Source: Nitrosospira multiformis (lineage in GTDB: Bacteria > Pseudomonadota > Gammaproteobacteria > Burkholderiales > Nitrosomonadaceae). From it: 64,000 nucleotides of DNA. The DNA is taken from assembly GCA_017306155.1 (NCBI GenBank), contig JAFKJB010000012.1, positions 124,001 to 188,000 of the forward strand, written 5' to 3'. Below are positions 19,261-21,727 of the stretch, one piece after another. A program made the translations under genes and the position numbers. The notes under the pieces are model-generated. The model did no database searches. It was not told the origin of the DNA and worked only from the letters and a program-made list of their open reading frames with translations. Each line of letters starts with the position of its first letter. Position 1 is the first letter of the stretch.

Positions 19261-20688
19261 CTAACTCCTGACTTCGTTACTATCTGGGCCAGAATCGGCG
19301 CCCAAGCTATTGCCCTCGAACTGGCCAGATTGGCTTGCTTCTTTCGGCTCCATGCTTTCGCGTATCGAAGCAGCCAGTTTTCCGCCTGTGGTTTCGCTCA
19401 CTCGCTCCTGGAATCCCTGCTTCACTTGAGAGCCGACACCCTTGGCTAACTCGGAGGCCGTGCCTGTGGCCAGCTTCGCGGCCTTGGCAAAGCCGCCACC
19501 GCTTGAGCTACTGCCGCTGTCACCAAAGCCAGCCGCTTGGGCGAATGGGCTACTGCCAGCAGTACCCGCTTCACCACCACCGTTTCCGCCACTGCTGACA
19601 ACTGACCCCATGCTGGACATGTCACCGCCGGTTTCCATACTCGCTGATGCTTTCTGAAAAGCCGCTTGGAGTGCACTTGCACCTCCGGCTGCACCGGCTG
19701 CGGCACCCATAACCGCTTTACCTGCCAGGGCAGCGCCGCCAGTTGCCATACTGGCCGCCGTCACCGCCGCCCCAACTGCCGCACCCGCACCGAAGTTTCC
19801 AATTCCACCGGCTGCGCCAATACCACCACCAGACACAAGACCAGAAATCATCGGCGGAACTTTGTTGACCAAGAAAAGCAAGATGACCGATATAACCAAC
19901 ATCACGGCCAGTTCCTGGGATGCCATGTTCTCGCTGATTTGCGTGTAGTAGTGATTGATGAACTCTTTGCCAATCGCAACCAGAAGCACCATTGCCATAA
20001 GCTGTGCGGCCAGGCCCAGCACGGTCTTGTAGTAATTGATCGCCATGTCGGAAGTCCAACGACTTCCACCAAAGCCAAGGAAGAACACACCGGCATACAA
20101 CAGAATCCAGGCTGATGCGAGCAACAGCAACAGGTTGACCGCAATCAACGCCAGGACAAACAAAACAGCCAGGGCCATTAGCTCCATGACCAGAGCAGTT
20201 GCCATCTGCCGCCATCCCAGCTCCGAGGTGGCCTGTACTGTGCGGTTGTATAACTCGAAACCAAGATCAAGGATGCTGGAGGGCCCAAGATTGCTATTGG
20301 AAAGTCCCCCCGCCTGCGCGCCCAGAGTTTGCAATGACTGAACAATCGTACCGGCGATATTCATGCCCTGGTTCGCATTCGTCAGCAACCACCAGAAAAA
20401 GCCGGTGAAGATCGTGAAGCGAACGAACTCCGCGAAGAACTCGCCAATGTCGGCCTTGCGCAAAGCCATCATGCCGAATGTCCAGACCATCGAAATCACA
20501 ACCAGCGTCCAGAACAAACGCGATGCAGCGGACTCAATAGCTGGCCCCCATGTTGCGGCAGCATCATGAAAACGCTTGAGCACATCATTCATAACACCGC
20601 TGCTACTTAGCTCCTGCGCCATTGCAGGTTCAGCCAGCACCATTGTGGCGACCATCATCAAGCCACCTAGAGCAATTTTCTTTCTCAT
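19261..20688 (-). CDS. trbL: TrbL/VirB6-like inner-membrane conjugation protein
   Basis: 475-residue polytopic membrane protein of the TrbL/VirB6 family, which forms the inner-membrane part of the conjugation channel and is a target of entry exclusion in several systems. I start at the ATG ending at 20688, giving a signal-like MRKKIALGGLMMVATM cut after AMA. Five or more helices lie between about 30 and 260 (for example LFWTLVVISMVWTFGMMAL). The C-terminal 200 residues are Gly/Ala/Ser-rich and disordered, as in RP4 TrbL. It follows trbJ and trbK in RP4 order, with no other trb gene around. Confidence 0.9.
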   Translation of the reverse strand: MRKKIALGGLMMVATMVLAEPAMAQELSSSGVMNDVLKRFHDAAATWGPAIESAASRLFWTLVVISMVWTFGMMALRKADIGEFFAEFVRFTIFTGFFWWLLTNANQGMNIAGTIVQSLQTLGAQAGGLSNSNLGPSSILDLGFELYNRTVQATSELGWRQMATALVMELMALAVLFVLALIAVNLLLLLASAWILLYAGVFFLGFGGSRWTSDMAINYYKTVLGLAAQLMAMVLLVAIGKEFINHYYTQISENMASQELAVMLVISVILLFLVNKVPPMISGLVSGGGIGAAGGIGNFGAGAAVGAAVTAASMATGGAALAGKAVMGAAAGAAGGASALQAAFQKASASMETGGDMSSMGSVVSSGGNGGGEAGTAGSSPFAQAAGFGDSGSSSSGGGFAKAAKLATGTASELAKGVGSQVKQGFQERVSETTGGKLAASIRESMEPKEASQSGQFEGNSLGADSGPDSNEVRS

Positions 20689-20698
20689 GGCGACCACC

Positions 20699-20935
20699 TC
20701 AATAATCATCTTTAGGGCTGGGCTTGAACTCCCACTGACGCATCTGCTTGGCCTTCTGGAATGCTCTGCATTCCTCGGTAAAGGCCTCTCGGTTCGCTTC
20801 GCTGCGCATTTCATTCAGTGCTGCCTGGAACGCATCGGGGGCACACGTCGCCGCATTTGGTTCGGGCATCCTTTCCTGTTCACATCCAGCCAACAACAGC
20901 AACGTAGCCGCGGTAGTAAAAAAGATTTTTTTCAT
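20699..20935 (-). CDS. trbK: TrbK/EexN-like entry-exclusion lipoprotein
   Basis: 78-residue lipoprotein with a lipobox LLLAGC (Cys18) after MKKIFFTTAATL. Position between trbJ and trbL and size match TrbK of IncP plasmids, which blocks entry of a second related plasmid. Two later cysteines (ATCAPDAF and EECRAF) are typical of EexN-like proteins. Its last residues, KQMRQWEFKPSPKDDY, are nearly the same as the end of TrbJ, a striking shared tail. Confidence 0.82.
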   Translation of the reverse strand: MKKIFFTTAATLLLLAGCEQERMPEPNAATCAPDAFQAALNEMRSEANREAFTEECRAFQKAKQMRQWEFKPSPKDDY

Positions 20936-20947
20936 CTCACCGCCTCC

Positions 20948-21727
20948 CTAGTAGTTGTCTGCCGGACTCGGGCGAAACGTCCAGGTACGCATTTGCTCGG
21001 CCCTGGCATCACCTCGCGCCTCGGCATCGAGTTCTGCTGCAATCCGGGCTGCCTCCGCGTTGTGTTGGGCGGTCAACATGGTGCGAATCTGCAAGAGCTG
21101 ATTGGCCTGCTGGCTGGCGAGCTGGTTGGCGTAGCCGATGGCCTGTAGCTGGCCAGTTGCACCCTGGGCCGCGCCTTGCAGCCGCTCCAGGGTACGGGCG
21201 TCATCCTTCAAAGCCTTTTGCTGGTCGGCAACGGTCTGGAACAGGGCATCGTTGGCCTTCTTTTGCGACTCTGACGCCAGGCGGCGGTTCTCTTCCATCG
21301 CTGCCTTTTCGGCCGGCGTGCATCCGCCGCTGCCGTTGAAGCATGGCGAGCTGCGGTAATAGGCCACGTCCTGAAACTTGGCCAGGTAACGATCCAGGCT
21401 GCCTAGCTGGTTCTCGTAATAGGCCAGCGTGTTTTGCGCGGCAATCAGCCGGTTGATCGTAGTCTGCGCCTGATCCCAGATATACGCGGCTGGGGCCATC
21501 GTGTTCTGGAGCTGATTTTCGTACTGCTGCAACTGGGTCTGGTACTGCTCAATCTGCTTGAGCGTCTGCGCCACCGACTCGATGGCCGTCATGATGTTCT
21601 GGGCCAGGTTGCCGCCGTCGATGACGGGGATACCAGCTTGCACAGGGGCGGTGGTAGTGGTGATAAAGCCGGTTGCGAGTGCAACGGCTAGAGCGGTTTT
21701 TTTAGCCGCTAAAATTTTGGACTTCAT
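20948..21727 (-). CDS. trbJ: TrbJ/VirB5-like conjugation protein
   Basis: 259-residue periplasmic/pilus-associated protein of the TrbJ (VirB5) family. Signal peptide MKSKILAAKKTALAVALATG ... VQA; start at the ATG ending at 21727, since further upstream residues do not form a leader. The mature protein is a long helical bundle (IESVAQTLKQIEQYQTQLQQ) with one Cys pair in SPCFNGSGGCTP. VirB5 proteins sit at the pilus tip or channel and affect recipient contact. The C terminus EQMRTWTFRPSPADNY mirrors that of TrbK. It is the first gene of the trbJKL set. Confidence 0.9.
   Translation of the reverse strand: MKSKILAAKKTALAVALATGFITTTTAPVQAGIPVIDGGNLAQNIMTAIESVAQTLKQIEQYQTQLQQYENQLQNTMAPAAYIWDQAQTTINRLIAAQNTLAYYENQLGSLDRYLAKFQDVAYYRSSPCFNGSGGCTPAEKAAMEENRRLASESQKKANDALFQTVADQQKALKDDARTLERLQGAAQGATGQLQAIGYANQLASQQANQLLQIRTMLTAQHNAEAARIAAELDAEARGDARAEQMRTWTFRPSPADNY

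What the first reader, a model, noticed from the sequence alone, without database searches (positions are those of the whole stretch)
19261..21727. A trbJ-trbK-trbL-only module: possible remodelling of a helper's conjugation channel
The island encodes just three of the P-type mating genes, in RP4 order: the VirB5-like TrbJ, the entry-exclusion lipoprotein TrbK and the VirB6-like TrbL. VirB6/TraG-type channel proteins are the target of exclusion in other systems, and SGI1 carries substitute subunits to evade IncC exclusion. By analogy, this satellite may swap TrbJ and TrbL into a helper channel to change recipient contact or evade exclusion, while TrbK guards its own host. Combined with the P-type oriT this would be a P-type satellite strategy.
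Basis: partly seen in the sequence, partly recalled or inferred. Interest (0 to 1): 0.82.

Follow-up and report, generated by a model that had tools for sequence, protein, structure and literature searches.

The report
GIsul2 island's swap-in mating exclusion module
A known resistance island carries three spare parts of a bacterial mating machine, and two of them end in matching protein tails that look like an identity tag; this could explain how hitchhiking DNA gets past the barriers that plasmids raise against their own kind.

Summary
The island is GIsul2 (window 11276-26673), already known. Its trbJ, trbK and trbL are intact and P-type; no other channel gene searched for and no relaxase was found, but there is an IncP-type oriT.

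What I add: (1) The trio is a widespread cassette: 74 of the 80 best TrbJ relatives lack trbB, C, E, F, G, I and M nearby; substitution rates exclude decay. (2) The C-terminal tails of TrbJ (VirB5-like pilus tip) and TrbK (exclusion lipoprotein) mirror each other within a locus and switch together (0 of 20,000 permutations; 14 tail families; controls flat). (3) 45 of 48 satellite sets have tails of four classes; only 1 of 24 complete systems comes near one. (4) A perfect KorB operator lies inside trbJ in 45 of 49 satellites.

I read the module as a swap-in exclusion cassette whose identity tag differs from its helper's. This is untested; the tail mirror did not turn up in my literature searches. 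Satellites are not one clade, and some published results cut against a strict tail-match rule.

The parts
20948..21727 (-). trbJ (VirB5-like pilus-tip protein); tail RTWTFRPSPADNY at 20951-20989
   Evidence: NCBIfam TrbJ 411.7 bits; tail; start
20699..20935 (-). trbK (entry-exclusion lipoprotein); tail RQWEFKPSPKDDY at 20702-20740 mirrors the TrbJ tail
   Evidence: TrbK_RP4 57.5 bits; tail; tests
19261..20688 (-). trbL (VirB6-like channel protein), likely start 20688 in ORF 19261-20814
   Evidence: TrbL_P 260.5 bits; Pfam TrbL
21701..21713 (+). perfect KorB-operator-like palindrome inside the first codons of trbJ; the only exact match in the 64-kb window
   Evidence: same site in 45 of 49 satellites; consensus recalled
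22148..22255 (+). IncP-type oriT with nic-like site 22241-22248; traJ-II RNA motif on the minus strand at 22148-22250
21868..22056 (-). FitA-like ribbon-helix-helix gene just upstream of trbJ
   Evidence: Pfam PF22513 60.5 bits
19008..19256 (-). 82-aa unknown protein, frequent companion downstream of trbL in satellites
   Evidence: no Pfam match; tblastn hit in 60 of 74 satellite loci
18720..18944 (-). ptaRNA1-type toxin gene, frequent companion
   Evidence: Pfam PF12703 107.8 bits; tblastn hit in 59 of 74 satellite loci
18938..19009 (+). PtaRNA1 antisense RNA
   Evidence: Rfam RF01811 86.6 bits
23089..23970 (-). repC (IncQ-type), island backbone
   Evidence: Pfam RepC 481.6 bits
23957..24784 (-). 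repA-like AAA ATPase, island backbone
   Evidence: Pfam AAA_25 107.3 bits
24789..25010 (-). alpA-like regulator
   Evidence: Pfam Phage_AlpA 51 bits
25158..26465 (-). tyrosine integrase next to guaA
   Evidence: Pfam Phage_integrase 85.9 bits
11276..11286 (.). left 11-bp direct repeat AATCATTCCCA (att-like)
26663..26673 (.). right 11-bp direct repeat at the guaA 3' end (att-like)
   Evidence: guaA 780.7 bits

Best explanation
trbJKL of GIsul2 is a swap-in exclusion-specificity cassette for an IncP-1-type helper. Inferred mechanism: a helper enters a GIsul2 cell; its relaxosome acts on the island's IncP-type oriT; the island's TrbJ (pilus tip) and TrbL (channel) assemble into the helper's channel in place of the helper's own. 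The TrbJ C-terminal tail is an identity tag. TrbK is in essence the same tail on a lipid anchor: in a recipient it occupies the site (probably on TrbL, perhaps on TrbJ) that the incoming TrbJ tail must use, and so blocks entry. Because the island's tag (SPADNY type) differs from the helpers' tag (mostly W-ending), a channel carrying island TrbJL would not be stopped by the helper's TrbK, while the island's own TrbK would stop donors with the island's tag. Shown here: the module, oriT and operator exist, the cassette is conserved and selected, TrbJ and TrbK tails match and switch together, TrbL parts co-vary with them, and most satellite tails differ from those of complete systems. Inferred: assembly into the helper, the tail as the exclusion determinant, the docking site, and the transfer advantage.
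For: Prevalence: 74 of the 80 best TrbJ relatives; 6 of 10 P-type TrbJ places, the window's included, in 398 evenly drawn genomes. Purifying selection, dN/dS mostly 0.06-0.2. TrbJ-tail/TrbK match: cognate 52.5 against 21.3, 0 of 20,000 permutations, controls flat; holds with one row per tail family, in complete systems alone and in satellites alone. K distance correlates with J tail 0.86, with J body windows 0.35-0.51; TrbL 60-100 and 140-340 co-vary, the TrbL C-terminus hardly. Satellite tail classes in 45 of 48 satellite sets against 1 of 24 complete systems. KorB operator in trbJ of 45 of 49 satellites, about 1.7e-4 per locus expected from codon usage. IncP oriT. Published: RP4 trbJ or trbK alone in a recipient protects it from the RP4 channel (PMC11045733, passages); the TrbK C-terminus is essential for exclusion (PMC8923210, sections).
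Against: No experiment I saw shows that GIsul2 TrbJ or TrbL works in any helper. A TrbL-based draw of 369 class genomes gave 12 places above cut-off, of which only 2 (the window and another GIsul2) lack other trb genes and 1 is unclear, so complete systems are common. Only 6 independent well-supported satellite/complete contrasts exist: 5 agree, 0 disagree, 1 neutral, p 0.0625; with the simpler criterion 'TrbJ ends in W or not' support is weaker, median p 0.25. Three satellites (L099-L101) carry helper-like W tails; one complete system (L181) a D-like tail. The cognate K scores best for 13 of 26 TrbJs, not for all. pKPC_UVA01 TrbK blocks R751 and R46 without reciprocity (PMC8923210), so tail matching cannot be the whole rule. 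In more distant VirB5 systems the match is strong in 2 of 9 and weak in the rest. J tail, K and the front of L are neighbours on the DNA, so TrbL co-variation may be linkage. Tail classes were named after seeing the data, and the 80 loci were ranked by likeness to the window's TrbJ.
Confidence: 0.58

Rival explanations
1. Recipient-side shield only: TrbJ and TrbK protect the host cell from entry or killing by P-type channels and rival satellites; TrbL rides along and nothing is swapped into a helper.
For: RP4 trbJ and trbK, each alone, protect recipients from the RP4 channel (PMC11045733 passages). A TrbK ORF was called in 105 of 107 loci with a P-type TrbJ; the other two are cut by contig ends.
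Against: trbL is under like purifying selection and its membrane and periplasmic parts co-vary with the tails. Satellite tails mostly differ from those of complete systems, a poor design for a shield against helpers. One complete system, L180, has no TrbK found.
Confidence: 0.2
2. Recipient-range change: the swapped TrbJ tip alters which cells can be contacted, and exclusion is incidental.
For: VirB5 is the pilus-tip protein thought to contact recipients (PMC12624023 passages).
Against: The TrbJ body is conserved between satellites and complete systems; the variable part is the tail, which mirrors an exclusion protein. One tail type is found in very different hosts, e.g. NWLEL.
Confidence: 0.1
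3. The J/K tail likeness is a by-product of duplication and repeated gene conversion between neighbouring genes, without a role in exclusion.
For: trbJ and trbK ends are adjacent, and tail, trbK and the front of trbL behave as one exchangeable block.
Against: The TrbK C-terminus is essential for exclusion in pKPC_UVA01. In pHH128 the first TrbK does not mirror the tail but a second TrbK-family ORF does. The likeness is confined to the tail (controls).
Confidence: 0.09
4. trbJKL is a decaying leftover of a lost transfer region.
For: GIsul2 lacks traI, traJ and traK, which a number of related satellites keep.
Against: dN/dS mostly 0.06-0.2 for the three genes over 10 relatives and 5 further pairs; TrbJ is 100% identical in 30 further loci.
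Confidence: 0.03

Closest known systems
[quoted passage not shown] 2017: recalled and as cited in papers, not read; PMC9376610)
   Same: This is that island: same genes, guaA site, 100% identity to plasmid-borne copies. Excision and integration by its integrase are shown (PMC9376610, passages with parts of the abstract). Guedon 2017 already proposes that its TrbJKL reshape an IncP channel.
   Different: The tail mirror, tail classes and KorB operator are not mentioned in what I saw of PMC9376610 and PMC5704250.
SGI1 family (TraN, TraG, TraH substitutes; IncC helper)
   Same: A satellite without relaxase that carries a few substitute channel subunits, including the VirB6-like one; described in PMC5704250 section 3.2.
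   Different: F-type channel and IncC helper with known AcaCD activation; here P-type, with a VirB5-like protein plus an exclusion lipoprotein, and no activator known.
IncP island of Burkholderia glumae (PMC5704250 section 3.3 passage)
   Same: TrbJ, a small TrbK-like gene and TrbL without the rest of the channel.
   Different: Keeps its own MobP relaxase and TraJ/TraK; 22 of the 74 satellite loci here have a traI hit.
IncP TrbJ/TrbK/TrbL (R751, and pBS228 standing in for RP4)
   Same: Orthologous trio in the same order; TrbJ and TrbK tails mirror each other there too.
   Different: Part of a complete channel; W-ending tails.
pKPC_UVA01 TrbK (PMC8923210)
   Same: Exclusion lipoprotein between trbJ-like and trbL-like genes; C-terminus essential.
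   Different: 151 aa, blocks IncP and IncN without reciprocity; its sequence was not examined here.

Membership tests
GIsul2 | about 15.4-kb island at the guaA 3' end with int, alpA, repA, repC, trbJKL, ars, ISCR2 and sul2 | tested here: met
P-type (IncP) TrbJ/TrbK/TrbL | curated family cut-offs passed, RP4 gene order | tested here: met
Relaxase-less mobilizable island with helper oriT | no relaxase or channel ATPase, oriT like the helper's | tested here: met
   no traI hit in the window, no VirB4 in the genome, oriT
SGI1-like satellite strategy | substitute channel subunits without the rest of the channel | tested here: met
SGI1-like satellite strategy | expression switched by a helper regulator | tested here: inconclusive
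   KorB operator in trbJ; no expression data
SGI1-like satellite strategy | substitution disables helper exclusion and raises satellite transfer | not testable with these tools
   needs mating assays; only the tail divergence is consistent
Integrative conjugative element | own complete conjugation machinery | tested here: not met
   of the trb and tra genes searched in the window only trbJ and trbL were hit; no PF03135 in the genome

The most novel reading that the evidence does not exclude
In P-type conjugation, entry exclusion works by a tail code: the exclusion lipoprotein TrbK is a membrane-anchored mimic of the C-terminal tail of the pilus-tip protein TrbJ, and matching tails mean 'self'. 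Satellites such as GIsul2 carry private tail types, swapped as a cassette (trbJ 3' end, trbK, front of trbL), which lets them ride a helper's channel past the helper's own exclusion.
Probability: 0.5. Interest if true: 0.87.

Novelty: new variant of a known kind. Interest (0 to 1): 0.74.

Why it matters
For IncP TrbK no donor-side partner has been identified, according to PMC8923210 (discussion read). The tail mirror names a testable determinant: the last 13-20 residues of TrbJ and TrbK. It would also explain why trbJ or trbK alone protects a recipient. It makes the 2017 proposal for GIsul2 directly testable, and shows GIsul2 as one of a broad set of P-type satellites, some of which carry other resistance genes.

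Tried and rejected
One satellite clade: rejected. On a TrbJ-body tree (67 rows, 18 complete, 49 satellite) the label needs 9 changes, at least 5 on well-supported branches.

Decay: rejected by dN/dS.

AlphaFold2 of TrbJ and TrbL: models too poor to use (mean pLDDT 53.9 and 50.8); no fold search was run. The TrbJ tail is unstructured in the model, which proves nothing at this confidence.

Tail mirror in distant VirB5 systems: 9 systems, including R46 and R388; strong in L105 and L118, weak in the others; 114 of 20,000 permutations reach the observed mean. I do not claim it as general beyond P-type TrbJ.

Resident helper: none found in the window's genome. For Rheinheimera D18, whose GIsul2-type island moved to E. 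coli at about 2.8e-7 per donor (PMC7775301, section read), the held record showed no PF03135, PF03432 or PF11130 match; plasmids of that strain may not be held, so the helper stays unknown.

KorB site in print: one paper held all terms; the passages I saw of it do not mention a KorB site in trbJ.

Literature: 9 searches (one search found no paper). The tail mirror did not show in the listings or in what I read of PMC8923210, PMC11045733 and PMC12624023. Harmer 2017 and Haase 1996 were not read.

Rows dropped or special: L038 and L048 (contig ends); L094, L096 and L127 left out as repeats of the window or of GIsul2; L055, whose trbJ ends early, is inside the counts and left out; seven rows without an AGIP anchor were not scored for KorB, and of the four satellite misses there L083 is cut at its 5' end and L075 has one changed base. 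L182 counts as complete by its PLSDB typing, since its record starts at trbJ.
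Full report
What is there. The three genes are real, intact and P-type: TrbJ 411.7, TrbK 57.5 and TrbL 260.5 bits, each above its NCBIfam cut-off. They lie on the minus strand of a 15.4-kb island between an 11-bp direct repeat at 11276 and 26663. The island is GIsul2: 15 plasmid records cover at least 80% of the query window 11100-26760 at 100% identity, and the gene set fits: Sul2, ISCR transposase, RepC, RepA-like ATPase, AlpA, integrase, resolvase, ArsR-like regulator, arsenate-reductase-like protein below its cut-off, ACR3 arsenite transporter and guaA. 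The oriT is of IncP type. None of trbB, C, E, F, G, I, M, traI, traJ or traK was found in the window; the genome has one TrbL_P match and no VirB4.

What was already known. Guedon et al. 2017 (PMC5704250, section 3.2 read, further passages) write that GIsul2 encodes TrbJ, TrbK and TrbL and no other channel protein, and propose that it reshapes the MPF_T of IncP helpers to promote retrotransfer. PMC9376610 (passages) shows that the GIsul2 integrase excises and integrates the island, and suggests IncP helpers. PMC7775301 (one section, and passages) reports transfer of ICERspD18B from Rheinheimera D18 into the guaA end of E. coli; that element is L037 here, whose int, alpA, repA, repC, trbJ and trbL match the window's at 100% by tblastn. 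Its helper is unknown.

The trio is a widespread satellite cassette. A TrbJ profile scan of one genome per species gave 335 stretches, 233 relatives, of which the best 80 were kept. In 74 of the 80 no trbB, C, E, F, G, I or M was found by tblastn; 6 have them. Of the 74, 72 have at least 1.5 kb and 66 at least 5 kb upstream of trbJ in the held sequence; 70 have a trbL hit (of the other four, L038 and L048 are cut by contig ends and L079 and L080 have a long trbL-place ORF); 22 have a traI hit, 54 an integrase at least 80% identical to the window's, 49 a guaA match within 2 kb of the integrase, 59 the ptaRNA1 toxin. The ranking favours likeness to the window, so I also used even draws. In 398 genomes of the phylum there are 10 TrbJ places above 300 bits, the window's included: 6 without and 4 with other trb genes. 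In 369 genomes of the class there are 12 TrbL_P places above cut-off: 9 have other trb genes, 2 (both GIsul2) do not, and 1 (L173, short contig) is unclear. Small plasmids carry the cassette too: p2990, an X. cucurbitae 14-kb plasmid, pA56, an A. xylosoxidans 18-kb plasmid and pSE5381. In L014-L043, 30 loci, TrbJ is 100% identical to the window's, which points to very recent spread.

It is not decaying. Against the window, dN/dS is 0.06-0.19 for trbJ (10 of 10 relatives), 0.08-0.20 for trbK (6 of 10; 4 saturated) and 0.10-0.14 for trbL (9 of 10; 1 saturated); five further pairs give 0.07-0.34.

The tail mirror. Aligning TrbJ and TrbK side by side showed that the last residues of the two proteins resemble each other within a locus, whatever the tail: GIsul2 RTWTFRPSPADNY with RQWEFKPSPKDDY; pA56 FEGLDKPTNRAKSKGY with YKGMDQPTDRTKSKEY; A. 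xylosoxidans NWLEL in both; R751 GSYRASPARTW with GDFKPSPKREW; gonococcal plasmid DILKHPYRR with DVLKRPYKR. Test: 105 loci with a P-type TrbJ and a TrbK ORF (K chosen by position, start codon and lipobox, not by tail), collapsed to 26 K clusters at 60% identity. Cognate tail score 52.5, non-cognate 21.3, 0 of 20,000 permutations as high, z 13; the cognate K is the best of the 26 for 13 TrbJs. Controls: TrbJ -75..-25 z -0.2, TrbJ -125..-75 z -0.9, TrbK N-terminus z 1.5. With L055 dropped and three plasmids added (28 rows) z 14.4; complete systems alone 8.8 (15 rows); satellites alone 6.5 (13 rows); one row per tail family (14) 10.4, each with 0 of 20,000; TrbL C-terminus as control 1.4 against K and 1.1 against the J tail. 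By simple patterns named after seeing the data, J and K fall in the same class in 61 of 67 distinct sets. Of the six others, three are pattern misses that match by eye (L091, L103, L126), L055 has a trbJ that ends early, and L010 and L070 have a first TrbK without the tail. In L010 (pHH128) a second TrbK-family ORF follows (9888-10103; TrbK_RP4 26 bits, cut-off 23) that ends ACMTKGQYRAAEPQTF against the TrbJ tail GSMTKGTYNMPTPQTF; in L070 that second ORF ends early. The shortest TrbKs (46-48 aa: gonococcal plasmid, L053) are little more than lipobox plus tail. One complete system, pPA35 (L180), has no TrbK that I could find.

The co-varying unit. Over 67 distinct JKL sets, TrbK distance correlates with TrbJ-tail distance at 0.86 (0.85 after removing the TrbJ body), with TrbJ body windows at 0.35-0.51 (0.76 for the window just before the tail), and with TrbL windows in residues 60-100 and 140-340 at partial 0.59-0.83 (numbering of the 517-aa ORF). 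TrbL 100-140, a conserved stretch, gives 0.13 and windows beyond 340 give 0.04-0.44. The unit that moves is thus the 3' end of trbJ, trbK and the membrane part of trbL. These are neighbours on the DNA, so the TrbL part may be linkage.

Satellites and helpers differ in tail. On the TrbJ-body trees satellites and complete systems are interleaved (9 changes). Yet 45 of 48 satellite sets have tails of four classes (SPxDNY, SSPDRY, EPVNRS, NWLEL), against 1 of 24 complete systems (L181, NWLSI). The exceptions among satellites are L099-L101, with W-ending tails; 15 of 24 complete systems end in W. Six independent well-supported contrasts: 5 agree, 0 disagree, 1 neutral, p 0.0625; the simpler criterion 'ends in W or not' gives median p 0.25. 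This is suggestive, not proven; classes were set post hoc.

Link to the helper. The window has one exact KorB-operator motif (consensus recalled), at 21701-21713 inside trbJ. The same site is in trbJ of 45 of 49 satellites and 15 of 17 scored complete systems; 7 rows could not be scored. From satellite codon usage the chance for that spelling is about 1.7e-4 per locus. KorB is an IncP global repressor (PMC7314908 passages). Function at this site is untested.

Mechanism. Published facts that fit: RP4 trbJ and trbK, each alone in the recipient, protect against the RP4 channel, while the other genes tested there do not (PMC11045733 passages); the TrbK C-terminus is essential (PMC8923210, sections read); no donor partner of IncP TrbK has been identified; VirB5 sits on VirB6 before pilus assembly (PMC12624023 passages). 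A shared tail on TrbJ and TrbK fits all four if the tail docks on the channel, probably on TrbL. On this reading GIsul2 TrbJL in a helper channel would present the island's tag. Against a strict rule: pKPC_UVA01 TrbK blocks R751 and R46 but R751 and R46 do not block pKPC_UVA01, and RP4 TrbK is reported to work less well on R751 although the tails of pBS228, standing in for RP4, and R751 are alike.

Verdict. Observation confirmed; interpretation partly supported and already published as a proposal; the new element is the TrbJ-TrbK tail mirror and its satellite-specific types.

Noticed in passing
L010 9888-10103 (pHH128); L070: IncP plasmid pHH128 has two TrbK-family ORFs; only the second mirrors the TrbJ tail. 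In L070 the second ends early.
   Followed up: partly
window 21701-21713; 45 of 49 satellites: KorB operator embedded in the first codons of trbJ, spelled with codons rare in these genes.
   Followed up: partly
L037 (Rheinheimera sp. D18): A GIsul2-type island was reported to transfer to E. coli, yet the held record shows no match to the VirB4 or relaxase families tried.
   Followed up: partly
L014-L043: TrbJ is 100% identical to the window's in 30 loci whose names span alpha-, beta- and gammaproteobacteria; in some, such as L014 and L022, tblastn saw neither sul2 nor ISCR2 in the held stretch.
   Followed up: no
L180 (pPA35): A P-type trb set with trbJ directly followed by trbL and no trbK found.
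   Followed up: no
L105, L118, L122: Distant VirB5-like proteins followed by a small ORF with a clear tail match (RGG..M.PRW in L105; SSGEPFEL in L118 and L122), hinting that the mirror reaches beyond P-type systems.
   Followed up: partly
window 18720-19256: 82-aa unknown protein and ptaRNA1 toxin with antisense RNA follow trbL; both genes recur in about 60 of 74 satellite loci.
   Followed up: no
window 10364-11344: The alternate F1F0 ATPase gamma-subunit frame runs across the left repeat into the island: the family match ends at residue 291 of 326, so the rest seems to be island-encoded in part.
   Followed up: no
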